DNA of 64,000 nt, from assembly GCF_038006205.1 (NCBI RefSeq), contig NZ_JBBOUU010000001.1:3412001-3476000 (forward strand), given 5' to 3'. The notes under the pieces are model-generated. The model had not been told where the DNA came from and did no database searches. It saw only the letters and a list, made by a program, of their open reading frames with translations. The translations under genes were made by a program, and so were the position numbers. Source of the DNA: Solibacillus sp. FSL R7-0668. GTDB taxonomy: Bacteria; Bacillota; Bacilli; Bacillales_A; Planococcaceae. The stretch's first letter is position 1; each line of letters starts with the position of its first letter. This document shows positions 2,434 to 51,823 of the stretch, piece by piece.

Positions 2434-3441
2434 CTACCGAATAGTCGCTTTTTTAAATCCGTCATATACAGAAATCGCAGCACTAAATATAAAGATCATA
2501 ATCGCCCCACCAATTACCCACATGTTCAATTGACCCTTTGTTATATTAAATATTTCCGTCAAATAGATAATAAAATCTGGGTTCATTAAATTTGGATTCA
2601 CTAAAATAATGATAAAGACAATGGTTGAAATTACTTGAAGTACCGCATTACCAATGGCCATTCTTTTTGTCCATTGTGCTTTGATTAGCTTATATAACGC
2701 CAGTATTACTTCAAATCCAACTAAAACAACTACAAGCGGCCAATATTTTAAAAGCACCTCCTGATTTAAAGCGGGTATGACAAATTCTAATCGGCCTCCG
2801 CTTCCTTCATATACTCCTACTAGCTGGTTGGCATAAAAATAAAGCGTTGCCCAAATCGCCGTCCACATTAAGCTCCCAAAAACCTCGAACTTTGAAATGG
2901 CCTTTTTCTTAGGTATATAAGCAACCTTTTTCAAATCATCAGCAGTCCATTTTTCCAAGCTTGAAGTTAAAGGCTGTTGCTCCTTGTCCTTATCAAATCT
3001 TTCAATTAGCGCAAAAGTTAATGTGAGCCAGAAAAACACCTGGATCCCTACCTCGATTATCGTCGCAATTCCATTACCAAGCATTGAAAGCACAACCGTT
3101 AAAATGGCCTCTTCCCCGTTGTAGTCGATAAAATATTGGGTAATTATTGTGATACATGCAATCACAGTGGCTATCGGTACAATCATTTTCAATAGCGACA
3201 TATATACATCAAAATAACGGGGACCTATGAGGTGCATTGGCTGGTCCTTGTAGCCGTTTGCCAATACTACTGGACTTCCTAATTGATTGAGTACCTCTTT
3301 AACATCCTGTTCATTATAATGATCGGGCAACATATCTTCAATTGTTGAACGTAACTCGAGCGCAATATCCGCTCGAAGTTTTTCAGGTAGCCTGCGCGTG
3401 ACCTCTTGAATATATATTTCAATTAACTTCATCTTCTTCAT
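2434..3441 (-). CDS. HAAS-domain membrane protein
   Basis: The protein has 335 residues. The N-terminal 60 residues (IEIYIQEVTRRLPEKLRADIALELRS ... VLNQLGSPVVLANGY) match the HAAS signalling domain that commonly accompanies PadR regulators. Six or so hydrophobic segments follow (around residues 80-100, 115-140, 190-205, 235-250, 265-285 and 305-325), giving a polytopic membrane protein. Its start overlaps the end of the PadR gene by 23 bp, so the two are translationally coupled. By family precedent the HAAS domain senses or transmits an envelope signal together with PadR; the actual signal is unknown. Confidence 0.8.
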   Translation of the reverse strand: MKKMKLIEIYIQEVTRRLPEKLRADIALELRSTIEDMLPDHYNEQDVKEVLNQLGSPVVLANGYKDQPMHLIGPRYFDVYMSLLKMIVPIATVIACITIITQYFIDYNGEEAILTVVLSMLGNGIATIIEVGIQVFFWLTLTFALIERFDKDKEQQPLTSSLEKWTADDLKKVAYIPKKKAISKFEVFGSLMWTAIWATLYFYANQLVGVYEGSGGRLEFVIPALNQEVLLKYWPLVVVLVGFEVILALYKLIKAQWTKRMAIGNAVLQVISTIVFIIILVNPNLMNPDFIIYLTEIFNITKGQLNMWVIGGAIMIFIFSAAISVYDGFKKATIR

Positions 3442-3766
3442 CTCCTCTTAATAGAGCATAAAGTTCATTCGAATTGTTAAACCATTCTGTTTTTAACTGT
3501 AGGAAAATTTCTAAACCATATTCACTCAATACATAGTACTTACGGGGTCTACTCTCTGAAGTATCCCAGCTGCTTGAAACCAACTCTTGCTTTTCTAATC
3601 GACGGAGCAATGGATAGAGCGTACTTTGATCAATGGAAATTCCTGATTGCTCCAATAACTGTACGAGCGAATAGCCATACTGAGGTGTCCTTAATTGACT
3701 TAAAACCGCTAACGTCAATGTTCCTCTTCTCAGTTCTGTCGTTAACGAATTTAATAAATTGTTCAT
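3419..3766 (-). CDS. PadR-family transcriptional regulator
   Basis: The 115-aa winged-helix protein has the standard PadR core: LRRGTLTLAVLSQL, YGYSLVQLL, ISIDQSTLYPLLRRLEKQELVSS and SRPRKYYVLSEYG. ATG 3766 is preceded by GGGGGTG. It lacks the long C-terminal dimer helix, as in PadR subfamily 2. It is the first gene of a two-gene operon with the HAAS membrane protein. Repeated ATACT/AGTAT elements in the 70 bp upstream fit autorepression, the usual arrangement for PadR-HAAS pairs. The physiological inducer cannot be told from sequence. Confidence 0.88.
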   Translation of the reverse strand: MNNLLNSLTTELRRGTLTLAVLSQLRTPQYGYSLVQLLEQSGISIDQSTLYPLLRRLEKQELVSSSWDTSESRPRKYYVLSEYGLEIFLQLKTEWFNNSNELYALLRGDEEDEVN

Positions 3767-4841: not shown

Positions 4842-4940
4842 TCGTCAAATCCTCCTAGTATAGAATTACTTGTTTTTTCCCAATAATTATAGAGTGCCCT
4901 CATATTAGAAATTCAATACTAATAATCACTTTCTAAAAAA

Positions 4941-5578: not shown

Positions 5579-5583
5579 AGTAT

Positions 5584-8354: not shown

Positions 8355-8580
8355 CATCAAGGGGGGTGTCCGAGAAGTGATTCTGGGACACCCCCTTGCG
8401 CCGAGGATGGAGGCCAGCACGATGCTGGTCATGAATGCGTTGACTCGCGTCGTGACGATTTTAGCATTCGTACCTATTTCGACCACCGCGAAAAGCAGCC
8501 TGCAGCGGATAATTAATACACGAACGAAGCACTGCGCTAAAAGTATTTACTTTTGGCGTAGCTCCTTTTTATTTTTGCTC
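8355..8580. repeat. Intergenic hairpin element, copy 2 (longer form)
   Basis: The stem AGGGGGGTGTCC (8360-8371) pairs with GGGACACCCCCT and is followed by TTGCGCC (8396-8402). A second small hairpin (GCCAGCA/TGCTGG) comes next. The tail has ACCACCGC, GCAGCCTGCAGCGGATAATT and AAAAGTATTT. The order of blocks matches copy 1 at 5455-5578, which lacks the middle part. The stem bases differ in a compensating way between copies. Confidence 0.6.
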
Positions 8581-17780: not shown

Positions 17781-17805
17781 AATTCAGCTATTGCTTAAAA
17801 ATATA

Positions 17806-17892
17806 ATGAATCGCTTCCCTACACCAGTGTTAACTGACAGGTTCAAAGAGTCAGGTTTTAACCTTCTCAACTCCAAAGAGTCCCCCCGCAAT
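17806..17892 (-). promoter_or_regulatory. TPP (THI-box) riboswitch aptamer
   Basis: Read on the minus strand the region gives GCGGGGGGACTCTT, GAGTTGAGAAGG, GACTCTTTGAACCTGTCAG, TTAACACTGGTGTAGGGAAGC. These are the conserved blocks of the THI element: GGGG, CTGAGA-like, ACCYTTTGAACCTG and TAATACTGGCGTAGGGAA. It precedes a strong terminator and then thiM. Control is by transcription attenuation in response to thiamine pyrophosphate. Confidence 0.93.
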
Positions 17893-17964
17893 AATGCTAT
17901 TCAATTTTATCCCATACTATCAACTGCTACTTTGGATGTCAATGGTGGATTCGTCACTTTTCGA

Positions 17965-34917: not shown

Positions 34918-36174
34918 CTAGACTTCTTTTTTGCCTGTTACGTATTCGTAAATTAAAGATTTTTTATATTGCTCTAATTCTTGAATTACTTTTTCCTTAT
35001 CATTAATAATGATGTTAATACCACTCAATTTATCATTCAAATAACTTACAATTTGATTTTGTTCAAATCGATTTGGTAACACAATAATTAGATTTGACAA
35101 TTCCTCTCTGTTTATTTTTGGCATTTTAACCCTATCTGCTGTAATCATACTAACTTGATGTTTAAAATAATATGACATCATTAAGTAAATAATAAATTCA
35201 CTATTTTCTGTTGTATCAATTGGATACATATCAGCGCTACAAAGACCATCAAAAGGTGCAATTACGACTTTATTAAGTTTTGGACGAATTTTAGAATATA
35301 AAATTTGCCCCTTATAAAAATAATAATTACTACTAGAAACTCCGGACTCTTTAACGGTTTTAAATTTTATTAATTTGGCTGTATCTTTTTCTATATCATC
35401 TGGAGAAACTTGTTGAAAATTAGGAAAATCATTAGGATTCACTAGATTGGATTTTATATTTATAACATTACCAAATTTCAAAACGCTCCATTTAACAGGT
35501 ATATATCCCATCCACTCAATCCCACTGTCCTTCATCTCACCATTTTTATCTAACCCTTTTGTTACTACTTCTGTAATTAACGTTTCCTTGTATTTTTTTA
35601 ATTCTTCGATGGATTGTTGGGTGTCTTTTATTAATTTAGAAATACGATTCAATTTTTCATTTAAAAACTGAACAATTTTTTCTTGTTCTTCTTTAGATGG
35701 ATAAACTATTGGAAAATTTTTTATCGTTTCATCGTTTAAAGTCCATCTATTTTCATAAGAAACTCCTTTACCATGTGTAAAAAAAGATCCTAGCCAATAT
35801 TGTAATTTAAAATAATAATTATAAAAATAAGGATTTGTATCTTTATTAGCTTGAAGATTTACATATGCAGGACTAATAACACCACAAACTTCTGATATAT
35901 TAGAATTGTCACCACTAACTAAATCCATAGGGTTAATTAAAATGTCACCTGGTGCAACTGGATTATAATTTGAATAATCAGCAGCAATTTGTCCTTCCCC
36001 TGTCGAAATATCCCTAATTTTAATTCCACTTCTAGCTAAAGTTAATATATCGAAATTTTCACTGTTAGGTTTTCCTTTTTTTCTAAAGAAATTATGCTTA
36101 ACCTTTTTCACTTGCCAATTAATTGGTATTTCACCAATCCACTTGACACCTGAGTCTTTCATTAGTCTAGTCAA
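34918..36174 (-). CDS. hsdS: Type I restriction specificity subunit S (system 2)
   Basis: TTG 36174 is used because AGGATG lies 9 nt before it and it overlaps hsdM by 8 bp; an ATG four codons later lacks a site. The 418-aa protein has two TRDs, each opened by an MKDSGxxW-G-IP-x-W block (residues ~5-18 and ~213-228). Helical spacers follow (EEQEKIVQFLNEKLNRISKLI and EQNQIVSYLNDKLSGINIII). The TRDs differ from those of system 1, so a different target is expected. Confidence 0.93.
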   Translation of the reverse strand: MTRLMKDSGVKWIGEIPINWQVKKVKHNFFRKKGKPNSENFDILTLARSGIKIRDISTGEGQIAADYSNYNPVAPGDILINPMDLVSGDNSNISEVCGVISPAYVNLQANKDTNPYFYNYYFKLQYWLGSFFTHGKGVSYENRWTLNDETIKNFPIVYPSKEEQEKIVQFLNEKLNRISKLIKDTQQSIEELKKYKETLITEVVTKGLDKNGEMKDSGIEWMGYIPVKWSVLKFGNVINIKSNLVNPNDFPNFQQVSPDDIEKDTAKLIKFKTVKESGVSSSNYYFYKGQILYSKIRPKLNKVVIAPFDGLCSADMYPIDTTENSEFIIYLMMSYYFKHQVSMITADRVKMPKINREELSNLIIVLPNRFEQNQIVSYLNDKLSGINIIINDKEKVIQELEQYKKSLIYEYVTGKKEV

Positions 36175-37951
36175 CGTTACTCACATCCTTGCCTGATAAT
36201 GCTTCGAAGTTTGCTACGATAGATTCCTCAAGTTTTTTGATTCGTTCTGCAATTGCTTCTGACGGTTCTGGTGCTGAGTATTTGTAGAATAGTCGTGTAA
36301 ATGGTATTTCGTAACCCATTTTGTCTTTGCTACGATCTATCCATGCATCTGGATTAAACGGCAATACTTCTCGTTCAAAGTAATCCTGGATGTCTTCTTT
36401 TAACGGAATGTCTTCTGTATCACGTAAGCTTGTATCTGCTACTGGTTTGCCTTTTTTTAATATGATATTGCCTTGTTCATCGCGTTGAGAGCTTTCGATT
36501 GTCACTTTTGTAAAGCCAAAATCAGCATTATCAAAGATTTTTGATTCTACTACTTTATCGCCTACGATATATTCTTTATTATCAAACTCACCATACGCTT
36601 GTACAATAACATCACGGCATTTCCCATCAATATCAACTCGTTTATTCCCTATATTTTTACGGCGTTTTATAAACATTTTTGATGCGTCAAGTAGTTGAAC
36701 TTTGCCTTGTCTTTGTGCTGATTTATTTTTTGTTAAAATCCAGACATACGTAGAAATTCCTGTGTTATAGAATAAATCCGTTGGGAGTTGAACGATTGCT
36801 TCTAGCCAATCATTTTCAATCACATATTGTCTAATTGCACTCTCGCCACCACCTGCATTACCTGAGAACAATGCTGAACCGTTGTGTACAATCGCCATGC
36901 GTCCTGTTTCTTTTAATTTAGAAAGTCCATTTAATTGGAATAATAATTGACCATCGCTAATTTTAGGCAAGCCAACACCAAAGCGACCGTTTTCACCTTT
37001 TTGATGTTCTTCCTCTACCTTTTGCTTGTCTTTTTTCCAATCAATACCAAAAGGTGGGTTAGAAATGCAGTAATCAAACGTGTAGCCTTCAAATTGGTCG
37101 TTAGATAATGTACTACCTAATGCCATGTTGTCTGGATTACCACCACGAATCATTGTATCGGCTTTTGCTATAGCATACGTTTCAGGATTTAACTCTTGTC
37201 CAAAAGTTACAACTTCCGCATGACTATTGAAATCATGAATACGCTCCATCATAGCTGACAGCATTTGAGACGTCCCCATCGTTTGGTCATACACTGTTTT
37301 TACAACATCTTGACCTGTTAATGTACTTTGATCTTCAACTAACAATAAATCCGTCATTAAATAAATGACATCACGGCTCGTAAAGTGCGCCCCAGCTTCT
37401 TCGTTATAGCTTTCCGAAAATTTTCGAACAAGTTCTTCGAAAATATACCCCATATCCGTACTCGTTACTTTATCTGGTCCTAAGTACGAATCTTTTTTAT
37501 TAAACTCTTGAATGACATGGTATAAAGCATCGTTCTCTGCCATCGTTGTTATCTCAATATCAAATTTAAAGTTCGCTAAAATATCCTGCATGTTATCAGA
37601 AAAACCATTTAAGTATTTTCGGAAGTTTTCTTCGATATTTGCAGGATCTGCAAGTAATTTATCAAAAGTATATTCACTTGTGTTGTAAAAAGAATAACCC
37701 GCAGCTTTTTCTAACATACGTTTTTGCATCGCATCATTCATATTTTTGCATTGTTCTACAGCTGCCCATACTTTTTCACGCGAAGGCATTAGCGTGTCGT
37801 GTAAACGCTTTATAACGGTCATAGGAAGAATCACTTTTCCATATTCGTGAGGCTTGTATAACCCTCTTAAAATATCCGCTACGTTCCAAATTAAATTGGC
37901 TTGTTTTTGGACATTTTGCGTTGTCTGTTGATTTCTGTTTAATTCACTCAT
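36167..37951 (-). CDS. hsdM: Type I N6-adenine DNA methyltransferase subunit M (system 2)
   Basis: ATG 37951 (AAGGAG 7 nt upstream) is preferred over the frame start at 37981, giving 594 aa. The N-terminal helical domain (IWNVADILRGLYKPHEYGKVILPMTVIKRLHD) is close to system 1. Motif I reads VYDQTMGTSQM (219-230), departing from GTGG, and motif IV is NPPF (298-301). FYNTGISTYVWIL and RDTEDIPL are conserved. It lies 72 bp after the fused methylase-specificity gene and overlaps hsdS. All catalytic features except the motif I glycine pair look normal. Confidence 0.93.
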   Translation of the reverse strand: MSELNRNQQTTQNVQKQANLIWNVADILRGLYKPHEYGKVILPMTVIKRLHDTLMPSREKVWAAVEQCKNMNDAMQKRMLEKAAGYSFYNTSEYTFDKLLADPANIEENFRKYLNGFSDNMQDILANFKFDIEITTMAENDALYHVIQEFNKKDSYLGPDKVTSTDMGYIFEELVRKFSESYNEEAGAHFTSRDVIYLMTDLLLVEDQSTLTGQDVVKTVYDQTMGTSQMLSAMMERIHDFNSHAEVVTFGQELNPETYAIAKADTMIRGGNPDNMALGSTLSNDQFEGYTFDYCISNPPFGIDWKKDKQKVEEEHQKGENGRFGVGLPKISDGQLLFQLNGLSKLKETGRMAIVHNGSALFSGNAGGGESAIRQYVIENDWLEAIVQLPTDLFYNTGISTYVWILTKNKSAQRQGKVQLLDASKMFIKRRKNIGNKRVDIDGKCRDVIVQAYGEFDNKEYIVGDKVVESKIFDNADFGFTKVTIESSQRDEQGNIILKKGKPVADTSLRDTEDIPLKEDIQDYFEREVLPFNPDAWIDRSKDKMGYEIPFTRLFYKYSAPEPSEAIAERIKKLEESIVANFEALSGKDVSNVD

Positions 37952-38023
37952 TTTCAGTCTCCTTAATAATACATATTTCACTAGAAACCCTTTAATAAAG
38001 GGCTTCTTACCATTTAAAAATAT

Positions 38024-39898
38024 TTATAACTTAGTTACAGCTTGAAATGCTGCGGTTAACCCCATTTTCTCATAAAGATCATAGTAATTGGCATTATATT
38101 TTTCCTTCGCCAATCGAATTGCATCTTCTAATTCGTTATCTGCATTCAAAAATTTCTTACCTAATGCTCGCTGTATATCAGCATCTATTTTTGGAACAAG
38201 AATTGATTCAATATCCTTCACACTCAATACCGTCACAGCAGTTCCCTTTTGCTTGGAAGTTATATAATACGTACCAATTGGACTTTCTAAAAACGATTTA
38301 ATGAAATAAGAATTCACATCGTTATTAGGTCGAATAATTATAAAATTATGCGATGCAACAAGCTTTCTATCTAACTGCGGTACAACAGCAATCTTAATAG
38401 CACTACCTCGACTAGATAATAAAATATCTCCCTCTATCACTTCATAAGCATTTGCCTTTTCTGGATCTAAATCAATTGCATTTAACTGCTCGAACTGAAT
38501 TTTGCCATCTTGAACATCCGCTAATTGAAGTAATTGGTATTCTCCATCCTGCTGCTCTAATTCTTTTTTGGGCGGCGTATTCATCCCCCTAATGATCTTT
38601 GCTAATTGCTTCATACTAACTTTTGGTTCTGGTGAATTTTCATAAGCATTTTTATTAACTAAAACTTCTCCAAAAATACTTTCCACATCGTCAACAGTAA
38701 AATAATTTCCGATATTTAAGTTAGCATCTTCAATATCCTCAATAGAAACAAACATGCTATATTGTTTAATTTCTTCAGCATTATAATATGCATTTATAAT
38801 TTTTTCTTGATCCTCTAACCTTAAAATGTTTTGCCCACGTGATTTTTCTACATGGTCTTGCGCATTAATAAATTGAATTTTACCTTTACGTTCAGATGAC
38901 TTGTTTTTATTTAAAATAAGAATAACTACAGGGATATTAGTAGTAGCAAATAGATTTTGCGGAAGACCAATAACTGCTTCAATTAAATCTTCATCTATAA
39001 GTGCTTGCCTAATCTTCTTATCTGCACCGCCTCTAAATAGAGTACCATGTGTAACGACAAGTGCAGCTTTCCCATCTTCTTTTAATGATGCTAATGCGTG
39101 CTGTATAAATGCCATATCCGCATTAGAATTACTCGGAATGCCGTACTTATACCGATTGTACAGGTCATATTCAGCATTTTCACTGCCCCAGTTTTTTAGC
39201 ATAAATGGGAAATTCATAAGCACATAATCAAACTTTTTAAGTTGCCCTTCAACAAATGCAGGTTCTAATAAAGTATCTCCCAATACATATTTAAAATCGA
39301 ATCCTTGAATTATTAAATTCATTTTACCTAGAGCATAGGTTGATGGGTTTATTTCTTGACCAAATAGTTGAACACTTTGTCCATGCTTATTTGCATATTT
39401 AGCTGCCTCTGTTAAAAGTAATCCGATACCTGCTGTACCATCATATACAGAACCAGACTTAATATTTAATAGCGGTGGGAGTAACGTAGTAATAGAATTC
39501 GGTGTGATAGACTCACCACCCGCTTTACCTTCTTGAGAAGCTAGAAAATATAACGTGTCTTGAAATAACTTTGGTGTAATTTGAATTTTATTGATAAGCG
39601 ATACTAATCTCTCGACAGTTTTATCATCTAAATCCATGATTTCTTGTATAGCAAATAAACCTTTTAACTCTGGATTTTTACTTTCAATATCTAATATGGC
39701 CTTTACTAACTTGTCTTTCAATTCCTGATTGGAAAAAATAATATTACTCCATTTAGTCAGCTTTGGAACTTTAAAACGATCATCACCTTCCAAAAACTTC
39801 ACCATCATTGTTGAAGTTACTATTTTCTTTTGTGTACTTGTATCTACTTCGCCTCTTAAAACATCAAAAGCTTTCCATACACCATTTAAATCCTCCAT
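38024..39898 (-). CDS. Fused HsdM-like methyltransferase with HsdS-like C-domain
   Basis: The 624-aa protein starts at ATG 39898 with AGGAGG. Residues 1-120 are helical and unlike the other two HsdM proteins. SAM motif I is YDGTAGIG (152-159). Motif IV is MNFPF (228-232), where N-x-P-F is kept but the first proline is Phe. Residues ~425-600 form one target-recognition domain (KVSMKQLAKIIRG ... YEVIEGDILLSSRGSAIKIAVV ... SVKDIESILVPKI). One TRD fused to a methylase is a half-S arrangement, so a dimer could read a palindromic site. As first gene of the system 2 operon it may be an extra modification enzyme or a regulator. Confidence 0.8.
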   Translation of the reverse strand: MEDLNGVWKAFDVLRGEVDTSTQKKIVTSTMMVKFLEGDDRFKVPKLTKWSNIIFSNQELKDKLVKAILDIESKNPELKGLFAIQEIMDLDDKTVERLVSLINKIQITPKLFQDTLYFLASQEGKAGGESITPNSITTLLPPLLNIKSGSVYDGTAGIGLLLTEAAKYANKHGQSVQLFGQEINPSTYALGKMNLIIQGFDFKYVLGDTLLEPAFVEGQLKKFDYVLMNFPFMLKNWGSENAEYDLYNRYKYGIPSNSNADMAFIQHALASLKEDGKAALVVTHGTLFRGGADKKIRQALIDEDLIEAVIGLPQNLFATTNIPVVILILNKNKSSERKGKIQFINAQDHVEKSRGQNILRLEDQEKIINAYYNAEEIKQYSMFVSIEDIEDANLNIGNYFTVDDVESIFGEVLVNKNAYENSPEPKVSMKQLAKIIRGMNTPPKKELEQQDGEYQLLQLADVQDGKIQFEQLNAIDLDPEKANAYEVIEGDILLSSRGSAIKIAVVPQLDRKLVASHNFIIIRPNNDVNSYFIKSFLESPIGTYYITSKQKGTAVTVLSVKDIESILVPKIDADIQRALGKKFLNADNELEDAIRLAKEKYNANYYDLYEKMGLTAAFQAVTKL

Positions 39899-43520: not shown

Positions 43521-43859
43521 TTGGATAACAAGGGGATAGGCATGCTAATCCGAAAAATACGACAAGAAAACGACTGGAAACTAATTGATTTAGCTGAGAA
43601 ATTGGATATTTCTTTCTCGTCATTATCGAAAATCGAGAATGGCACACAAGACATAACTTATACGATGTTGAGAAAAATTTGTAATCAGTTCGATTTATCA
43701 CTAAGTCAGTTTTTCAGGGAATTGGAGCATAGTATTAATATTGAAGCAGAAGCAAACGATTTAGAAGAAATCGACATATTATTGGAATTAACAAAAGAAA
43801 TTGAAAAACTTTCAGTTGTTCAACAAAAAGCTTTATATATTTTATTAAAACAACGCTAA
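43521..43859 (+). CDS. XRE-family transcriptional regulator
   Basis: TTG 43521 has GAGGTGAG upstream. The 112-aa protein has an N-terminal Cro/C1 helix-turn-helix: IGMLIRKIRQENDWKLIDLAEKLDISFSSLSKIENGTQDITYTMLRKICNQFDLSLSQFF. A helical C-terminal part (LEEIDILLELTKEIEKLSVVQQKALYILLKQ) follows, probably for dimerisation. It is the only plus-strand gene of this block and probably autoregulates through the CTATTTATA repeats. It likely governs the element's replication or excision genes. Confidence 0.8.
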   Translation: MDNKGIGMLIRKIRQENDWKLIDLAEKLDISFSSLSKIENGTQDITYTMLRKICNQFDLSLSQFFRELEHSINIEAEANDLEEIDILLELTKEIEKLSVVQQKALYILLKQR

Positions 43860-44285
43860 TTTTAATATTCATCTTTAGGAAGTTTGGTCCTAGACATAAT
43901 AATTATTTTATTTTGTAGCAGTCTTACTCCCCTTTTAATAAGAAATCAAAATTTATTTCATTTAAAAATACTTCTTCAGGTGTAATAAATAGAGCCAGCC
44001 AATATAATGAAGGCTGGCTTTAATTATTTATTTCAAAAAAGTTCATTATGCCCCTTAAAATTCCATGGACATGCTGTTATATTGTTTATGTTAGTAAATT
44101 CACTTATTTTTTATTGTTTTTTTATCCAACAATTGCGAGATGTTTTTCTAAACACTCTTCTAAAAATCCTTCTTCGAAATGAAATCAAGGCATCTATCAT
44201 GCGATTTCACCAACAAATTCAATCCATTCGCTTCAATTAATAATTCATTATTCGTAAACTAATATTCCCATTTTGATGGTTTCTA
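43860..44285. other. Intergenic region before the large structured RNA
   Basis: The regulator's terminator lies at 43993-44014. The rest (44030-44280) holds no convincing gene on the plus strand. On the minus strand EANGLNLLVKSHDRCLDFISKKDF and a stop are readable near 44160-44235, perhaps a gene scrap. Confidence 0.35.
43993..44014 (+). terminator. Terminator of the XRE regulator gene region
   Basis: AGCCAGCC and GGCTGGCT pair around AATATAATGAA and run into TTTAATTATTT. It lies about 130 bp past the regulator stop codon. Confidence 0.65.
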
Positions 44286-44291
44286 TATAAT
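44286..44291 (+). promoter_or_regulatory. TATAAT -10 box for the structured RNA
   Basis: A perfect TATAAT lies about 7 bp before the first helix of the RNA. The -35 region is weak (TTCCCA about 15 bp upstream), so the assignment rests on the -10 box and position. Confidence 0.45.
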
Positions 44292-44297
44292 AATTCA

Positions 44298-44868
44298 GCA
44301 TTACAGAACAAAATAGCTCGTCACTACTTGTTCTGCCAATTAATTGGCGATTTATATATAATGAAAATCCAATTGTAAATCGTGCCGTTGCCAAACTTTA
44401 CGTTGGTCTAATGCGCTAGCTGTTGCTCTGCATTAGTTAGAAATACCTTCTCCCCTTTAGCTAGGAGAAAAAATGATGATAACACATCTAAAAATGTAAG
44501 AAGCTAAATCAGTTGGACGGTCTGATCTATCGTCAAGTGCGTATGCGACTACGTCATCGTAGGTTTTTATAACTTTTGCCATTGGAATTTGTCTTAGGAC
44601 AACATTCTCACTTTTCATCTAGTTGAGGGATGAAATCTGTGGAATACAGATATAAGTGAGCCGCACCTGTCTAAAATGACAACAAGTCGTGTACTTGTAG
44701 TGTGCAACGAAAACTCACCGAAATACTAAAGTCTTTCTTTTACACCATATAGACAGAAAGAAAATATTTAGGAAAAGCCTTTATTTTCTTTAACTGGTGT
44801 AATGAACTTTATATAAATTCTATAAAGATCAGACTTTTTAGCAGCAGGCGAAGTCTGTCTTTTTTTAT
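44298..44868 (+). ncRNA. Large (~570 nt) highly structured non-coding RNA
   Basis: No ORF explains this stretch, but base pairing does. Simple helices: 44304-44310/44329-44335, 44336-44339/44344-44347, 44348-44354/44376-44382, 44408-44414/44430-44436, 44448-44453/44464-44469, 44549-44553/44558-44562, 44589-44593/44598-44602. Three-way junction 1: 44607-44613/44654-44660 with arms 44614-44619/44629-44634 and 44635-44640/44646-44651. Three-way junction 2: 44663-44666/44702-44705 with arms 44668-44671/44678-44681 and 44682-44687/44693-44698. Then 44740-44747/44795-44802 encloses 44757-44766/44782-44791, followed by 44807-44813/44821-44827. Loop 44456-44462 pairs with 44502-44508 as a 7-bp pseudoknot. 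Helix 44520-44527/44827-44834 closes the 3' domain. It ends at a terminator. Confidence 0.8.
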
Positions 44869-44874
44869 TTTTTT
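44830..44874 (+). terminator. Intrinsic terminator of the structured RNA
   Basis: CAGACTT (44830-44836) pairs with AAGTCTG (44851-44857), followed by TCTTTTTTTATTTTTTT. The left arm is also needed for the long-range helix with 44520-44527, so the two pairings are mutually exclusive. Confidence 0.85.
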
Positions 44875-44889
44875 GAAAGGAATGATTTT

Positions 44890-45870
44890 ATGCAACATAA
44901 ACGTGGATGGATTAAAACCGATGATGAAATTCGGGATTATGCAAATAAAGATGACGATTTGCACAACAAAGGGGCATACATTAATTTAATGACACAGCTA
45001 AATAAACTGGCTCGTCATAGTAAAGGCATTAGTGTTCATAAGTCGATGCAGCAATACTATCATCACGTTCACCTTTTCTGCTTATTTTTAGCAGATTATT
45101 TCAGTTTAAAAACATTAGCAAATATTCATGATAAACATATCGTCGCTTACGTCATCGAAAGACAAGATGAAGGAAAATCCGCTTCAACTATTAAAAATGA
45201 TTTAGCAGCGATTCGCTATTTTCATGACCAAATTCCAAACACTCGATATCGAATTAGTGACAATCAAAAATTGAAAGAAAAGTACCCTGAATTTGATTTA
45301 GAGCGAAGAAAGTTCGGTGGTGTTAATCGCCGCGCAACAGAGTATGAATATCAAGCATTAGTAGCACTTGCTGCAAATTCGAAGAATCCTAAATTATCGT
45401 ACATTATTCAATTAGCACGAGAGCTTGGACTACGTGTTCACGAAGCGGTAAAAGTCGACCGCGCTAATGCTAAGAAAGCTTTAAGAACAGGTCTATTAAC
45501 TGTGAAAGGAAAAGGCGGGTTAATCCGTAATGTTCCAATCAATAGTACTGCATCAACTATCTTGAAATCGGCTATGAGCGGCATTGAACGTGGTCATAAA
45601 CTATTCGTTCCAGTGCATTTGAAAACACATCAAGTGATTCAACAAATACAGGATTTCGTACGTAATAACCGCGATAAAGTACGTGATCCATTTAATGACC
45701 GAGCTGAGGGTGTTGAAATAACTATGCATAGTTTCAGACATAATTATGCAAAAGAACAGTTCGAATACTTTTTAGAGGAAGGACATGAGCCAGAAGATGC
45801 GAAAAGAAAAGTATCGAGGTTGATTGGTCACCATCGAGCAGATGTAACTGATATATATTTAGCAGACTAA
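44890..45870 (+). CDS. Tyrosine recombinase (integrase)
   Basis: The 326-aa protein has a SAM-like N-domain (residues ~30-130) and a tyrosine-recombinase catalytic domain. The first Arg is in LARELGLRVHEAV, Lys in LTVKGKGG, H-x-x-R in MHSFRHNYA, the second His in LIGHHRADVT and the nucleophile Tyr in DIYLAD near the C-terminus. ATG 44890 follows AAAGGAATG. It is preceded by the structured RNA's terminator and followed by a shared terminator, so it is a single-gene unit. The end is short after the Tyr, as in Integrase_1-type proteins. Such enzymes integrate elements or resolve multimers. Confidence 0.88.
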   Translation: MQHKRGWIKTDDEIRDYANKDDDLHNKGAYINLMTQLNKLARHSKGISVHKSMQQYYHHVHLFCLFLADYFSLKTLANIHDKHIVAYVIERQDEGKSASTIKNDLAAIRYFHDQIPNTRYRISDNQKLKEKYPEFDLERRKFGGVNRRATEYEYQALVALAANSKNPKLSYIIQLARELGLRVHEAVKVDRANAKKALRTGLLTVKGKGGLIRNVPINSTASTILKSAMSGIERGHKLFVPVHLKTHQVIQQIQDFVRNNRDKVRDPFNDRAEGVEITMHSFRHNYAKEQFEYFLEEGHEPEDAKRKVSRLIGHHRADVTDIYLAD

Positions 45871-46796: not shown

Positions 46797-47047
46797 TCTA
46801 TCACCTTTCCTGTTAACATTTTTTTATCGAATTTTAATTTGCTTACTACGATAACTTTAAAAGAAAACCTGTTTTTTAGGAAATGAGAGTTTGAAATCGA
46901 TAACTACATTTCTGAACAATTTCAAACTATTATACTCACAGATTTTTCTATTATAAGAGGTAATTTTAATTTTCAATCATTATGGATTTAACTAGGAATA
47001 TAGAAAATCGAAGTTATACTGTTTTGAGAATGGAGGTGAAGGTCAAA

Positions 47048-47458
47048 ATGAATTTGGACCAAGCATTAAAACAAATCGAAGAGTTAAAGGCCGAATTAGC
47101 TCTATCTGAAAAGAAACTGATTAGCGAACAAAAACGACTACGAGAAATCATCGGAGCCTGGCGGAGAAAAGCTGAAGGCAAAGGTATATTCAAGGAAGAA
47201 ATTCGAGAAGGCTATAATGCAGTATCAGGTATGCATTACAAAACTTACACCATTTCGTTACCTGCTGATCTGCCAATAGAAGAAATTTTAAGTTATTTAA
47301 AGACTGAAAGTTTACCCAATCTATATCCGTATGTATTCAAAAAAATTGATTATCTACCTCGATCAAAAGCCTGGGCCTTCGAAGTTGAAATGGATTTAAA
47401 TTACGACATTCGTTTAGAAGAAGCATTTATAAAGCAATATTACGAAGAACATTTTTGA
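47048..47458 (+). CDS. Hypothetical protein with N-terminal coiled coil
   Basis: ATG 47048 has GGAGGTGAAGG 9 nt upstream; the longer frame from 46982 lacks a site. The 136-aa protein starts with a coiled coil (LDQALKQIEELKAELALSEKKLISEQKRLREIIGAW). A compact domain follows (GYNAVSGMHYKTYTISLPADLPIEEILSYLKTESLPNLYPYVFKKIDYLPRSKAWAFEVEMDL). No family recognised. It directly precedes the 110-bp hairpin repeats. It could bind them; that is only positional. Confidence 0.55.
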   Translation: MNLDQALKQIEELKAELALSEKKLISEQKRLREIIGAWRRKAEGKGIFKEEIREGYNAVSGMHYKTYTISLPADLPIEEILSYLKTESLPNLYPYVFKKIDYLPRSKAWAFEVEMDLNYDIRLEEAFIKQYYEEHF

Positions 47459-47932: not shown

Positions 47933-48082
47933 ATGAAAATTGATCGTAAATTTGATAATGTCGCACCCGTAACTGCTATTCGTGTCACTCTTGAAGTGTT
48001 ATTTGACACATTTATCGCTCAGTATTATTCTGAAGATAAGGTGATTTCTACTGCATCTTCTTTTGTGAAGGAGGATGCATAA
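47933..48082 (+). CDS. Small protein at the head of the recombinase operon
   Basis: The 49-aa frame (MKIDRKFDNVAPVTAIRVTLEVLFDTFIAQYYSED ...) starts after AGGAGG. Its stop codon is 1 bp before the next start, and the next gene's GGAGG is inside its last codons. This is typical of translational coupling, so the small protein may serve mainly to gate expression of the two recombinase genes. No known domain. Confidence 0.65.
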   Translation: MKIDRKFDNVAPVTAIRVTLEVLFDTFIAQYYSEDKVISTASSFVKEDA

Positions 48083-48083
48083 A

Positions 48084-48872
48084 ATGAAATATGCAATCTA
48101 TATTCGAATCAATACAGCAACAGACAATGAAAATGTGTCTATCACGAATCAAGTTACGCTCTTTGAAAACTTCATGAAGAAAAACGGCATAGAGCTTTAT
48201 AAAATTTATTCCGATATCGCAGGTGGTTCAACTTTAGAGCGTGAAGGCATTCAACAATTGATGACAGATGCCAAGAAGAAAAAATTTGAAGGCGTTATCG
48301 TACAAGATTTAACTCGCATCTCGCGATTAGGTCATTTAACTCAATTAGTAACTGACGTTTTAAATACTAATCAAATTAAGTTAATTACTTTATCAGAGTT
48401 AAATACTGATAATTACCCGACACTAGCAGGTTTTATTAACGATACTAGTAATACGAGCGTAATGGATTATATACACCTAAATTCAAAGCGTTGTGCTATC
48501 TATGTCCGTACACCCAAGGATTCAAGTGAACATTTGATTTCAAATCAAATTAACCAGTTGAATAAACTTGCTGATGTTCTTAAATTAGAAATTGATAGTA
48601 TCTACATCGATGAAGGTTCAGGTTCCGAATTAAATCGAGAAGGTCTCCAAAAACTAATGTCTGATGCCCATGATAAAAAATTTGATGTGGTACTTGTACA
48701 AGGGCTATCACGCGTTTCACGTAATGCAGCAACAACTAAACAATTTATCAACTTATTGAATACTAATGAAATTGAGTTGCTATCTTTTGATGCTCAAAAA
48801 ATTCAATTTTTAAATGATATGTTCGAACATTCAAGTAATCTTCCAATTATGGAGGATGGCCGACATGTTTAA
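48084..48872 (+). CDS. Double resolvase-domain protein lacking both catalytic serines
   Basis: ATG 48084 follows GGAGG at 8-9 nt. The 262-aa product consists of two consecutive serine-recombinase N-domains and nothing else. Domain 1 (residues 1-~135) reads YAIYIRINTAT where active enzymes have YxRVST, so the nucleophile Ser is Asn. Domain 2 (~136-262) reads CAIYVRTPKDS, Ser to Pro. Other signatures survive: REGIQQLM/REGLQKLM, TRISR/SRVSR and DEGSGS. No DNA-binding domain follows. Its stop overlaps the intact recombinase by 8 bp. It probably heteromerises with that enzyme as a regulator or directionality partner; this is inference. Confidence 0.75.
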   Translation: MKYAIYIRINTATDNENVSITNQVTLFENFMKKNGIELYKIYSDIAGGSTLEREGIQQLMTDAKKKKFEGVIVQDLTRISRLGHLTQLVTDVLNTNQIKLITLSELNTDNYPTLAGFINDTSNTSVMDYIHLNSKRCAIYVRTPKDSSEHLISNQINQLNKLADVLKLEIDSIYIDEGSGSELNREGLQKLMSDAHDKKFDVVLVQGLSRVSRNAATTKQFINLLNTNEIELLSFDAQKIQFLNDMFEHSSNLPIMEDGRHV

Positions 48873-50448
48873 GCGAAAAAAAGGAAAAAAGAAGTTACGG
48901 GTTGTAGCTTATGTTCGTGTATCGACGAAATACGAAAGTCAGCAAACATCCATTTCTGCTCAAATCGCAATGATTAAAAATTTCGCAGATGAAATGGGTT
49001 GGGAACTTGTAGAAATTTATATTGATATCGAATCCGGAGCAAAGTCAAATCGTGAAGGTATTCAAAAATTGATGACAGATGCCAAAAACAAAAAATTTGA
49101 TGTAGTTGTGACCAAAGAGTTCTCTCGAGTATCGAGAAATAGTGCATTTTCATACGAGTTTTATGATGTCCTAATTCACAATCAAATTGATTTAGTAGCA
49201 CTCGATGGATCTGTTAATACACTAGAAGATAATTCTATGAACTTGGGGTTATATGTGTGGCTGTCTGAAAATGAATCTGTAAGAACTAGTAGACGAATTA
49301 AAGCAGCGTATGATACACGTGTAAAATTAGGTCGCTTTGATGAAGCGCCATTTGGCTACGATTTAAAGGATGGACGATTATATGTTTCTAGCGATGGTAG
49401 TGCAGAAGTTGTGAAACAAATTTTTGCAGATTATATTGCAGGTAAGAGCTTCGATGGAATAGCACGTGCCTTATATAAAGAGGATGTTCCTACCCCAGCA
49501 AAACGAAAAGGTCATCAAAATGCCGGCGAAGTTTGGCACGGCTCTTCTGTTCGACAAATTCTAGAACGTGAAATTTACACTGGTAAACTTGTTGCAAAGA
49601 AAACTTCAACAATTTCTCCTACAACAACAAAGCGAATTGTTAACGATGAAGAGGATTGGATTGTTCGAGAAAACACACATGAGGCAATTATCTCTAAGGA
49701 AGATTTCGAATTAGTACAGCAGCTTATTAAAGCTAGAAAACGTATTCGTTCCCAACAAACTATACACCTATTTACAGGACTACTCATTTGTGCTAATTGT
49801 GGTGCAGGTATGCACTTTAAACGTGATCGTTATGTTTGTGGATATCAAAATAAATATGGGAAAAAAGCCTGTTCAGAAAATTTCCGTCCCATCGAAACAA
49901 AATTAATCCAAGCAATTTTAGATGATTTAAATTCACTTTATTTTTCAAAAGTATCTCAAAATTCTATTGAGAAGCTTTTAGACAAACAAATCGAAAATTC
50001 ACAGACTAAAGTAAATAACGATTTAGAAAACTTCAACTTAAAATTAACTAGTCTACGAAAGAAAAAACAAAAGGCTTTAGAACTGTTCCTAGATGATAAA
50101 ATTGATCAAGATTCATTCAACAACCTTGCATTGACATTAAATCCCCAAATTGACGAATTGGTCGAAAAGATTAATTTGTTAGAGGTTGAAGAAGAAAATG
50201 AAACAACCATCAATGTTGATGAACTAAAGCAATATATTCGGCAAAAACTAAATCCTGAACAACCGTTAACAGAATTAACACCAGAAATTCTAGCACGATT
50301 TGTAAAGGTTATCAAAGTAAAAGCAGACGGCCAATTAGAGGTGCATTATCGCACTTCTAAACCGTCTGCTTTTTATGTTTCTGACAATATTAAATTAACT
50401 ATACCAAAGACGCATCCAAATAAAGCGTACGTTGAAAAACACGCTTAA
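48865..50448 (+). CDS. Large serine recombinase
   Basis: ATG 48865 has GGAGG 9 nt upstream; the earlier in-frame start lies inside the previous gene. The 527-aa protein has a catalytic resolvase domain with Ser20 (VVAYVRVSTKYES) and VTKEFSRVSRNSAFSYEF. Next is the recombinase domain (APFGYDLKDGRLYV ... GKSFDGIARALYKE ... GEVWHGSSVRQILEREIYTGKLV). A zinc ribbon begins at residue ~305 (LLICANCGAGM ... YVCGY ... KACSE), and a coiled coil and C-terminal beta domain follow. It should integrate or excise the island. Its last codons lie 8 bp from the rlmCD stop. A 57-bp piece of its 3' end is duplicated at 27191. Confidence 0.93.
   Translation: MFKRKKGKKKLRVVAYVRVSTKYESQQTSISAQIAMIKNFADEMGWELVEIYIDIESGAKSNREGIQKLMTDAKNKKFDVVVTKEFSRVSRNSAFSYEFYDVLIHNQIDLVALDGSVNTLEDNSMNLGLYVWLSENESVRTSRRIKAAYDTRVKLGRFDEAPFGYDLKDGRLYVSSDGSAEVVKQIFADYIAGKSFDGIARALYKEDVPTPAKRKGHQNAGEVWHGSSVRQILEREIYTGKLVAKKTSTISPTTTKRIVNDEEDWIVRENTHEAIISKEDFELVQQLIKARKRIRSQQTIHLFTGLLICANCGAGMHFKRDRYVCGYQNKYGKKACSENFRPIETKLIQAILDDLNSLYFSKVSQNSIEKLLDKQIENSQTKVNNDLENFNLKLTSLRKKKQKALELFLDDKIDQDSFNNLALTLNPQIDELVEKINLLEVEEENETTINVDELKQYIRQKLNPEQPLTELTPEILARFVKVIKVKADGQLEVHYRTSKPSAFYVSDNIKLTIPKTHPNKAYVEKHA
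50319..50375. repeat. 57-bp repeat (twin of 27191-27247), inside the recombinase gene
   Basis: Identical to 27191-27247. It is a quasi-palindrome with arms AAAGCAGACGG and CCGTCTGCTTT and an inner GTGC/GCAC stem, and here it encodes ADGQLEVHYRTSKPSAF of the recombinase. Confidence 0.85.
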
Positions 50449-50455
50449 ATAAGGA

Positions 50456-51823
50456 TTAGTCAGCTAGTTCAAGCCACGCACAGCATTCACAATGCGTCGT
50501 ATGTGGGAACATATCCACTGGCTGAACTTCCTGTGTTTTATACCCGCCGTCCTCTAAAATACGCAAATCACGGGCTAAAGTGGCAGGGTTACATGATACA
50601 TAAACAACACGTTTCGGCTTTTGCTCGATGATCGTATTTAATAACGCCTCATCACAGCCTTTACGTGGTGGGTCTACTACTAAGACGTCTGCAACTTTGC
50701 CCTCAGCGTACCAGCGTGGGATGACTTCCTCGGCTGGACCGGCTTCGAAATAGGTGTTTGTGAAGCCGTTTAGCTCGGCATTGCGTTTGGCGTCTTCAAT
50801 TGCTTGCTCGACAATTTCAACACCCATGACATGACCGGCTTTTTGTGCTAAAAATAGCGAGATGGAGCCGATACCGCAGTAGGCATCAATGACACATTCA
50901 TTGCCTTCAAGCTGTGCATAGTCCAGTGCTTGCTTGTAGAGCACTTCGGTTTGAAGCGGGTTTACTTGATAGAACGAACGTGCCGAAATTTCGAAGCGTA
51001 CGTTGCCGATTGTGTCTTCAATCGTATCTTTGCCCCATAGTGTGAACGTATCGTTACCGAAAATAACATTCGTTTTGTCGCTGTTTACGTTTTGGACAAT
51101 GGACGTCACATTTGGTACAAGTGCTCGGATTTTTGCGATGACTTCCTCTTTTTGTGGGAATTTTTTTGCTTTCGTGACAAGTACGACCATCACTTCGCCT
51201 GTTGCACGACCTTTACGCACAACAACATGGCGCAGCATTCCTTGGTGAGAGGCTTCGTCATATGGACGAACGCCTAATACCATAAGCTCATGCTTTAAAT
51301 CGGCCATCATCGTGTCGGCTTCACCTGTTTGAATTAAGCAGCGCTCCATGTTGACAATGTTATGCGATTTTGTTTTGTAAAAGCCTGCTACAATCTCGCC
51401 TGTTTCGGATTGTGCAAATGGGATTTGAGATTTATTGCGGTAATGCCATGGCTCGTCCATTCCCTTTACTGGATGAACAGGCGCATCGATTTTGCCTAAG
51501 CGCTTCATGGCATTTTCGACCATTGATTGCTTCCATTTGAGTTGTCCCTCATAGGAAAGATGCTGTAATTGGCAACCACCGCATTGTTCGAAATAGTCGC
51601 ATGGTGCATCTACACGGTCGGGTGATTTCGTTAAAATTTCTACGATTTTCGCAAAGCCGTAGTTTTTTAACGTTTTCAATACATGCACTTCCACTGTTTC
51701 ACCAGGCAGTGCCCCTTGAATAAATAATGGATAGCCATCGATTTTCGCAACGCCATTGCCATCATGTGTGAAATCTTCTATATAAACTGTTGTACGCTCA
51801 TTCTTTTTAATTGGTGCTGTCAT
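50456..51823 (-). CDS. rlmCD: 23S rRNA (uracil-C5) methyltransferase RlmCD
   Basis: The 455-aa TrmA-family enzyme methylates uridines in 23S rRNA; Firmicutes RlmCD does U747 and U1939. An N-terminal TRAM domain (residues 5-65, [30 protein letters not shown]) binds RNA. The iron-sulfur ligands are [11 protein letters not shown]. The SAM fold holds [14 protein letters not shown] and [11 protein letters not shown], and the nucleophile Cys is in [14 protein letters not shown]. It ends [13 protein letters not shown]. The gene is intact despite the island ending 8 bp past its stop codon, which identifies the 3' end as the insertion site. Confidence 0.93.

What the first reader, a model, noticed from the sequence alone, without database searches (positions are those of the whole stretch)
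44298..44868. A roughly 570-nt multi-domain structured RNA in the mobile island
Between an XRE regulator and a tyrosine recombinase, about 570 bases without a credible ORF fold almost completely into perfect helices. Two three-way junctions are adjacent (44607-44660 and 44663-44705). A 7-bp loop pseudoknot joins 44456-44462 and 44502-44508. A 16-mer-sized hairpin (44757-44791) is nested in an 8-bp stem. An 8-bp long-range helix joins 44520-44527 to 44827-44834. A TATAAT lies just upstream and an intrinsic terminator ends it. The last arm is shared by the long-range helix and the terminator, which would allow a switch. Size and mobile-element context resemble the large ornate RNAs ROOL and GOLLD, but I cannot confirm membership.
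Basis: partly seen in the sequence, partly recalled or inferred. Interest (0 to 1): 0.92.

Follow-up and report, generated by a model that had tools for sequence, protein, structure and literature searches.

The report
Unknown RNA paired with plasmid recombinase
Next to one family of DNA-cutting-and-joining enzymes on plasmids and mobile islands of many bacteria lies a large, elaborately folded stretch, probably an RNA of no described family, whose constant company suggests that enzyme and RNA work together.

Summary
It has homologues directly upstream of the same tyrosine recombinase in five other genomes of the window's family (Lysinibacillus, Rummeliibacillus). Their alignment folds far better than column-shuffled controls (z -8.9, SCI 1.17; coding control z -1.2), with compensatory changes in most helices. 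No Rfam family matches. Following the recombinase outward to other Bacilli, Clostridium, Oscillospiraceae and small plasmids shows a common anatomy: a three-way junction, a UACUnAAC box, a GAGAC box (often in a 13-28 bp hairpin) and a 3' pairing motif. A covariance model of the junction matches beside the recombinase only (3 of 299 genomes of the class; it misses the window's own clade). In one Alicyclobacillus locus the element lies convergently downstream of the recombinase, so it is not merely a leader. Best reading: a new RNA class, a separate gene that works with a Xer/integron-like tyrosine recombinase as regulator or RNP partner. Transcription, strand and function are inferred, not shown.

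The parts
44298..44868 (+). structured RNA element (5' end uncertain: near 44298, or about 44369 if the TATAAT at 44357 is used)
   Evidence: six-genome alignment, alifold z -8.85, SCI 1.17; homologues
44304..44335 (+). P1 hairpin (44304-44311 x 44328-44335); possibly upstream of the transcript
   Evidence: 43 of 44 cells paired, 4 both-side changes
44369..44406 (+). P2 hairpin; CYGUUGCC in its loop in all six sequences
   Evidence: inner part 29 of 30 cells, 6 both-side changes
44408..44436 (+). P3 hairpin with inner AGC-UGUU-GCU
   Evidence: 28 of 42 cells; only the outer pairs keep register
44448..44508 (+). P4 hairpin (44448-44469) whose loop 44456-44462 forms a pseudoknot with 44502-44508
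   Evidence: P4 36 of 36 cells, 8 both-side changes; pseudoknot 37 of 42 cells
44475..44488 (+). P5 hairpin GAUG/CAUC
   Evidence: 24 of 24 cells
44508..44526 (+). P6 hairpin whose loop 44515-44520 pairs with 44855-44860 at the 3' end (PK2)
   Evidence: P6 29 of 30, PK2 30 of 30 cells (hand alignment; only 12 of 30 and 19 of 36 on the automatic alignment)
44530..44534 (+). pairs with 44847-44851 (P6b); with PK2 it holds both arms of the terminator-like hairpin
   Evidence: 27 of 30 cells; 23 of 24, 3 both-side changes
44549..44562 (+). P7 hairpin
   Evidence: 27 of 30 cells
44607..44660 (+). three-way junction 1 (P9, P10, P11)
   Evidence: P9 42 of 42; P11 30 of 30 with 7 both-side changes (19 of 36 on the automatic alignment)
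44660..44731 (+). three-way junction 2 (P12-P14) and the box that follows (either AACUCACC ending at 44719 or AUACUAAAG ending at 44731); the module shared across Bacilli and Clostridia
   Evidence: the best family-model match in the window locus falls on 44662-44719, at an insignificant score
44745..44756 (+). CCAUAUAGACAG box (GAGAC-box equivalent), not in a long stem in this clade, in a long hairpin in many others
   Evidence: only exact copy in the window; family survey
44844..44866 (+). 3' motif: terminator-like hairpin 44844-44858 and T-run, or long-range partner of the P6 loop and of 44530-44534
44890..45870 (+). tyrosine recombinase, 326 aa, six active-site residues intact
46982..47458 (+). 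158-aa protein of unknown function, conserved downstream in relatives

Best explanation
The element is a separate gene for a structured RNA of about 500-570 nt, a member of a previously undescribed RNA class that travels with one family of Xer/integron-like tyrosine recombinases on plasmids and islands of Bacillota. I think the RNA acts on the recombinase system itself: it folds into a compact core (pseudoknots, two three-way junctions), presents the UACUnAAC and GAGAC boxes, and either binds the recombinase (or its DNA complex) or controls when it is made. Its 3' end can either pair back into the core or form a terminator-like hairpin before a U-tract, which would also set read-through into the recombinase gene where the RNA lies upstream of it. 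Shown here: conserved structure, strict association, the convergent arrangement in one locus, intact active site. Inferred: transcription, strand, binding, any effect on recombination.
For: Conserved structure: alifold -165.9 against -100.9 (sd 7.4) for 60 column shuffles, z -8.85, SCI 1.17; recombinase coding control z -1.15, SCI 0.84. Automatic consensus: 115 pairs, 36 with a both-side change. Junction module: 98.4% of 249 cells paired, 13 of 13 pairs with both-side changes, score 0.858 against at most 0.130 when slid (alignment fitted to the model). Association: 24 model matches at E<=5 in 23 of 43 sources; 23 of 24 on the sense strand upstream of a recombinase, 1 convergent beside it. In 8 plasmid loci not used to build the model the best match lay upstream of the recombinase in 8 of 8, E 8e-5 to 1.2; they are 6 distinct elements, and one (L078) is a 97% copy of L045, which is in the model. 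299 genomes of the class gave 3 matches, each at a recombinase locus already known. GAGAC-type box 85-190 nt upstream in 37 of 46 recombinase genes, shuffles mean 4.4, max 9; stricter box 34 of 46, shuffles mean 0.7, max 4. Not only a leader: in Alicyclobacillus ferrooxydans (L043) the only junction match lies on the opposite strand downstream of the recombinase, pointing at its 3' end. Gaps before the recombinase: 12 of 12 annotated plasmid loci at least 546 nt, median 1286; 79 other gaps median 196, 13 of at least 500, maximum 868 (gene tables incomplete). R182, K208, H280, R283, H314, Y323 invariant in 26 of 26 (catalytic roles recalled).
Against: No transcript data. The minus strand of the six-genome alignment folds as well as the plus strand (-162.8, z -10.9), so the strand rests on G-U asymmetry (5 G-U, 2 other, 0 A-C mismatches in 18 stems; 9, 4 and 0 in 20 if the two near-copy Alicyclobacillus stems of another hairpin are kept), the T-tract and orientation. 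The convergent case is a single locus. The family model scores the window's own clade insignificantly (window E 4.5 at the right place; Rummeliibacillus not at the right place) and missed 20 of 43 sources, the window clade among them; the link from the window to the wider family rests on the sequence profile (Sutcliffiella plasmid E 8e-12, four others 6e-5 to 4e-3), the order of features and the homologous recombinase. The box is also found on the antisense strand of 23 of 46 regions (loose) or 16 of 46 (strict), in part because of the palindromic hairpins.
Confidence: 0.5

Rival explanations
1. Purely cis-acting leader: a very long attenuator or riboswitch whose 3' arm switches between long-range pairing (read-through) and terminator hairpin (stop), controlling recombinase expression only.
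For: Sense-strand position upstream of the gene in 23 of 24 model matches. Both arms of the terminator-like hairpin are complementary to separate upstream segments in the six genomes (P6b 23 of 24, PK2 30 of 30 cells). In several Oscillospiraceae loci the 3' motif runs into a T-rich stretch complementary to the Shine-Dalgarno region (my reading).
Against: L043 carries the element convergently downstream. In the Paenibacillus plasmids the 3' motif ends 143, 144 and 506 nt before the gene (L079, L083, L028), against 30 in the window. The local hairpin has 6 pairs in the window and looks weaker by eye in the relatives.
Confidence: 0.25
2. The conserved unit is DNA: a folded single-strand recombination substrate (as integron attC) or a resolution site bound by the recombinase.
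For: Closest solved fold is the integron integrase, which acts on folded single strands (2a3v, E 5e-7; its substrate recalled). The GAGAC boxes in palindromic arms look like paired binding sites. Both strands fold equally well.
Against: The loop between the two arms varies from 3 to 79 nt and the left copy is missing in several clades, unlike the fixed spacers of recombination sites (recalled). Mismatches in the stems are G-U on the sense strand, never A-C. Foldseek values for XerH, lambda Int and Cre are not far behind, so the integron match is not distinctive.
Confidence: 0.12
3. A plasmid replication, copy-number or segregation RNA that sits beside the recombinase by chance of plasmid architecture.
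For: 14 plasmid records carry the recombinase, several with ParA or Rep genes nearby.
Against: The neighbours change while RNA and recombinase stay together, also in chromosomal islands and as two complete units on one Clostridium contig.
Confidence: 0.08

Closest known systems
IS110-family recombinase with bridge RNA
   Same: a mobile-element recombinase with a dedicated structured RNA encoded beside it (abstract start of PMC11208158 in the listing)
   Different: unrelated recombinase type (that IS110 is not a tyrosine recombinase of this fold is recalled); no guide-like match between RNA and its own flanking DNA found
HEARO / RAGATH-18 RNAs, later found to guide IscB and IS607 TnpB
   Same: conserved RNA noticed by its constant neighbour in mobile DNA (RAGATH-18: abstract start of PMC11061315 in the listing; HEARO recalled)
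   Different: no Rfam match at the element; partner is not a nuclease of that kind
ColE1 cer site and its Rcd RNA with XerCD
   Same: RNA encoded at a plasmid tyrosine-recombination locus (passages of PMC5357621)
   Different: Rcd is 70 nt and made from the recombination site; here about 500-570 nt, family-wide structure and a plasmid-coded recombinase
STAXI motif
   Same: structured motif often near XerDC-type integrases and other DNA proteins (passages of PMC2864571)
   Different: repeated pseudoknots near varied genes; no Rfam match here; our element is tied to one recombinase family
ROOL and GOLLD RNAs
   Same: large ornate RNAs of mobile DNA with pseudoknots (passages of PMC12286853)
   Different: ROOL and GOLLD lie in phages and prophages, often near tRNA islands; no Rfam match here
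Integron integrase IntI / XerH
   Same: closest solved folds of the protein
   Different: 15-18% identity in the top matches; no RNA partner known to me (recalled)

Membership tests
ROOL | match to the Rfam covariance model | tested here: not met
GOLLD | match to the Rfam covariance model | tested here: not met
ROOL/GOLLD | phage or prophage setting, often near tRNA genes | tested here: not met
   0 tRNA genes in the window; relatives lie on plasmids and islands; two distant relatives are on IMG/VR contigs
OLE, HEARO, raiA, RAGATH-18, STAXI, Bacillus-plasmid and other Rfam 15 families | gathering-threshold match at the element | tested here: not met
   window; 28 related loci scanned whole (14, 14): 5 matches, none at the element; below threshold only hits to unrelated families. 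Not scanned: among others L040, L041, L042, L046, L067, L068, L078-L085
IS110 bridge RNA system | recombinase of the IS110 family | tested here: not met
   tyrosine recombinase domains and residues
IS110 bridge RNA system | guide loops matching donor and target DNA | tested here: inconclusive
   longest RNA-to-flank exact matches in 17 loci lie within the range of 20 shuffles each; targets elsewhere not examined
Transcription attenuator / riboswitch leader | always 5' of the controlled gene, same strand | tested here: not met
   23 of 24 matches yes, L043 no
Transcription attenuator / riboswitch leader | mutually exclusive terminator and antiterminator | tested here: inconclusive
   compatible pairings conserved in a hand alignment; local hairpin found in the window, weaker by eye elsewhere
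Tyrosine recombinase superfamily | catalytic R-K-H-R-H-Y set and fold | tested here: met
XerC/XerD equivalog | NCBIfam cut-off | tested here: not met
   49-53 bits against cut-offs of 330-335
Integron attC-type substrate | cleavage of the folded strand by the integrase | not testable with these tools
   needs biochemistry

The most novel reading that the evidence does not exclude
An RNA-dependent tyrosine recombinase: the RNA is an obligate component that assembles or aims the recombinase, with the GAGAC and UACUnAAC boxes as the working surface and the long hairpin as a removable mask. It would be the first tyrosine recombinase known to work with an RNA, as far as I recall and as far as the listings show.
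Probability: 0.2. Interest if true: 0.97.

Novelty: categorically new. Interest (0 to 1): 0.88.

Why it matters
A structured RNA class spread over Bacilli and Clostridia with a single constant protein partner is rare; earlier cases of that pattern turned out to be guide RNAs. Tyrosine recombinases are thought of as protein-only enzymes (recalled). If the partnership is real, it adds RNA control to a central class of DNA-rearranging enzymes and gives a compact system (one RNA, one protein of about 300-330 aa, plasmids as small as 8 kb) in which it can be tested at once.

Tried and rejected
Blastn of the window element against plasmids and phages: no match at E 0.01; only the protein route opened the family. 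The hit in G019 is a 26-base match with no such recombinase among the ORFs of the 8 kb read. A canonical recombination site for the palindrome was considered and put low because the loop varies and one half is missing in several clades. The 12-mer at 44745 has no second exact copy in the window; in the genome a 15-mer around it has 6 matches with up to 2 mismatches, 1 exact (itself) and 1 with one mismatch. A guide-target match inside the same element was sought and not found. Strand choice by consensus energy failed: both strands fold equally.

MAFFT on unequal junction sequences misaligned them (and two rows); the models were therefore started from a trimmed, N-padded alignment of 15 segments chosen by eye (A7), which is circular; the pair counts on A7 are not used as evidence. 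The blind part of the test is L043, L040, the second L051 unit, L055 and plasmids L078-L085, whose junctions I had not read before the search; of these L078 is a 97% copy of L045, L080/L084 are 96% alike and L083/L085 identical, L080 is 69% like L030 over 262 nt, L040 72% like L039 and L046 over parts. L038, L018 and L035 were in A7 yet not found. In one search the automatic arm look-up placed P2out, P3b and P14 wrongly; the PK1 row (10 of 30) has a register error and drops the window. I cite PK1, and P2in, P4, P6, PK2, P6b, P11, P13 and P14; the hand alignment favours pairing. In one search a GAGAC-type box was found 88-316 nt upstream in 40 of 46 recombinase genes; misses L028 (box further upstream), L043 (other strand), L047 (variant box), L045 and L078 (only a box at -37 in another hairpin), L056 (none). 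Left out of the 46: L025 (copy of L030), L085 (copy of L083), L021 and L023 (contig ends), L057 and L060-L062 (weak relatives).

The 2017 paper on 224 RNAs is not held. No paper on an RNA linked to a tyrosine recombinase turned up in the searches, of which I saw listings only, apart from the passages named in the full report; absence from a partly held literature proves little.

Full report
Observation. The stretch 44298-44868 lies between an XRE regulator (43521-43859) and a tyrosine recombinase (44890-45870) and carries no ORF of 60 aa or more. It folds better than 100 of 100 shuffles, z -3.41. No Rfam family reaches its threshold there, and a permissive scan of 44100-45000 gave only four sub-threshold hits to unrelated families.

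Homologues of the window copy. Searching by the recombinase in 261 genomes of the family gave 10 genomes at E<=1e-40. The six-sequence alignment gives an RNAalifold consensus of 115 pairs, 36 with at least one both-side change. On a second alignment the consensus energy is -165.9 against -100.9 (sd 7.4) for 60 column shuffles, z -8.85, SCI 1.17; the first 600 nt of the recombinase gene from the same six give z -1.15, SCI 0.84. The minus strand scores equally (-162.8, z -10.9), so energy alone does not tell the strand.

Which helices hold. Counted on the automatic alignment: P1 43 of 44 cells, P5 24 of 24, P8 24 of 24, P9 42 of 42, P12 23 of 23, P6b 27 of 30, P7 27 of 30, pseudoknot PK1 37 of 42; P6 (12 of 30), PK2 (19 of 36), P10 (16 of 27), P11 (19 of 36) and P13 (16 of 24) are out of register there. 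Counted on a hand alignment, which favours pairing: P4 36 of 36 with 8 both-side changes, P11 30 of 30 with 7, P13 28 of 28 with 10, P14 28 of 28 with 9, P6 29 of 30 with 5, P2 inner 29 of 30 with 6, P10 21 of 24 with 2. In its place, the loop of P6 (44515-44520) pairs with 44855-44860 in 30 of 30 cells and 44530-44534 pairs with 44847-44851 in 23 of 24; these two segments overlap the two arms of the terminator-like hairpin at 44844-44858, so the idea of a shared 3' arm survives in another form.

The wider family. The recombinase has relatives on 14 plasmid records, in 27 loci of the GTDB species genomes (five of them are the Lysinibacillus and Rummeliibacillus loci already named) and in 5 viral contigs, 3 of them weak. 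A profile of the window clade plus Lentibacillus finds the element at the right place in a Sutcliffiella plasmid (E 8e-12) and weakly in four loci of Brevibacillus and Paenibacillus (E 6e-5 to 4e-3). Reading the upstream regions shows a common order: a three-way junction, UACUnAAC or GUGCUAAAC, a GAGAC-type box, and in Bacilli and Oscillospiraceae a 3' motif close to GCCAAYGGGUGAAnUCUGYCC, often with Ts after it (no clear 3' motif in Clostridium). A covariance model of the junction (R1, 15 trimmed segments) found 22 matches in 46 sources, 494 kb, all beside a recombinase. The second model (R2, from those 22 real sequences) has 98.4% of 249 cells paired and both-side changes in 13 of 13 pairs, score 0.858 against at most 0.130 when slid. 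It matches 23 of 43 sources at E<=5. In 8 plasmid loci outside the model the best match is upstream of the recombinase in 8 of 8 (E 8e-5, 0.003 twice, 0.024 twice, 0.25, 0.76, 1.2), but these are 6 distinct elements and L078 is a 97% copy of L045. It matches 3 of 299 genomes of the class, all three known loci of this recombinase (strict filters, and two recombinase genomes of the window clade in that set, G000 and G118, gave no match). On the window clade and two bridging loci, unfiltered, the top match in the window locus falls on 44662-44719 but at E 4.5; the expected place was also matched in Lentibacillus and the four Lysinibacillus loci at E 1.1 to 7.9, in one of them below an antisense match; not in Rummeliibacillus; in Sutcliffiella only in part.

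The GAGAC box. In 37 of 46 recombinase genes such a box lies 85-190 nt upstream, against a mean of 4.4 (maximum 9) in 200 sets of shuffled regions; with a stricter pattern 34 of 46 against 0.7 (maximum 4). Of 21 loci chosen for a closer look, 19 have the box or a variant in a stem of 13-28 pairs found by plain DNA complementarity, with loops of 3-79 nt; in 18 of these stems (14 pairs or more) the mismatches are 5 G-U, 2 other and 0 A-C on the recombinase's sense strand (L045 and L078 gave another hairpin, with 2 G-U and 1 other each). In the window clade, Oscillospiraceae and some others the left arm is missing, so the right-hand copy is what is kept. The variable loop and missing arm argue against an ordinary recombination site; the G-U excess, though small in number, argues for a folded sense strand, as RNA.

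Not just a leader. In Alicyclobacillus ferrooxydans L043 the only junction match lies on the minus strand at 5130-5078, followed by the hairpin (5065-5017) and a GAACTATGCCC motif near 4900, pointing at the 3' end of the recombinase gene that ends at 4882. A Clostridium contig carries two complete units.

The protein. The recombinase has integrase domains, falls far below XerC/XerD cut-offs, has R182, K208, H280, R283, H314 and Y323 invariant in 26 of 26 sequences (catalytic roles recalled), and a model of mean pLDDT 89.4, pTM 0.62 closest to an integron integrase (2a3v), then XerH, Tn1549 integrase, lambda integrase and Cre. No solved relative by sequence at E<=0.1.

Function. The strict company of RNA and recombinase, the separate gene in L043 and the size of the structure favour a partner or regulator acting on the recombinase system over a plain leader; the bistable 3' end would add control of read-through. 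A guide function is open: exact matches between RNA and its own flanks are no longer than in shuffles in 17 loci. Transcription, binding and effect remain untested.

Literature. From search listings, abstract starts and passages only: bridge RNA (PMC11208158, listing), RAGATH-18 RNAs guiding TnpB (PMC11061315, listing), ROOL/GOLLD setting (PMC12286853, passages), Rcd at cer (PMC5357621, passages), STAXI (PMC2864571, passages), a 67-bp microbiome RNA candidate often near integrases (PMC8040213, passages), and PMC8632094 (passages: no mention of integrase or recombinase). In what I saw, none describes this element.

Noticed in passing
window 34918-39898 and 48075-51823; L004 1-9832: The window island and the Rummeliibacillus island both sit beside a rumA-like gene (my reading) with large serine recombinases, but carry different defence cargo: type I restriction-modification with two HsdM-like genes here, Gabija there.
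   Followed up: partly
L045 about 3160-3500; L078 upstream of 3992; L043 minus strand near 5580: Alicyclobacillus copies carry repeats like GGAGTAGC..AAGAAGC in the 5' part of the element; no explanation.
   Followed up: no
L051 2683-4010 and 6574-7754: Two complete RNA-recombinase units on one Clostridium weizhouense contig, with what looks like an IS110-type transposase gene in two ORFs between them (the transposase name is my reading).
   Followed up: partly
window 46982-47458: A 158-aa protein without a Pfam, PHROGs or NCBIfam match is conserved just downstream of the recombinase in Lysinibacillus, Rummeliibacillus and Ectobacillus.
   Followed up: no
window 17798-17897 (-), 8414-8480 (-): TPP riboswitch and Bacillaceae-1 RNA.
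   Followed up: no
L017 5495-5560 (-), L027 959-1042, L038 881-1176: RAGATH-18, skipping-rope and BsrG RNAs near some of the related loci, none at the element.
   Followed up: no
window 48075-48872: A 265-aa ORF that seems to hold two copies of a serine-recombinase N-terminal part and no more, just before a full-length serine recombinase.
   Followed up: no
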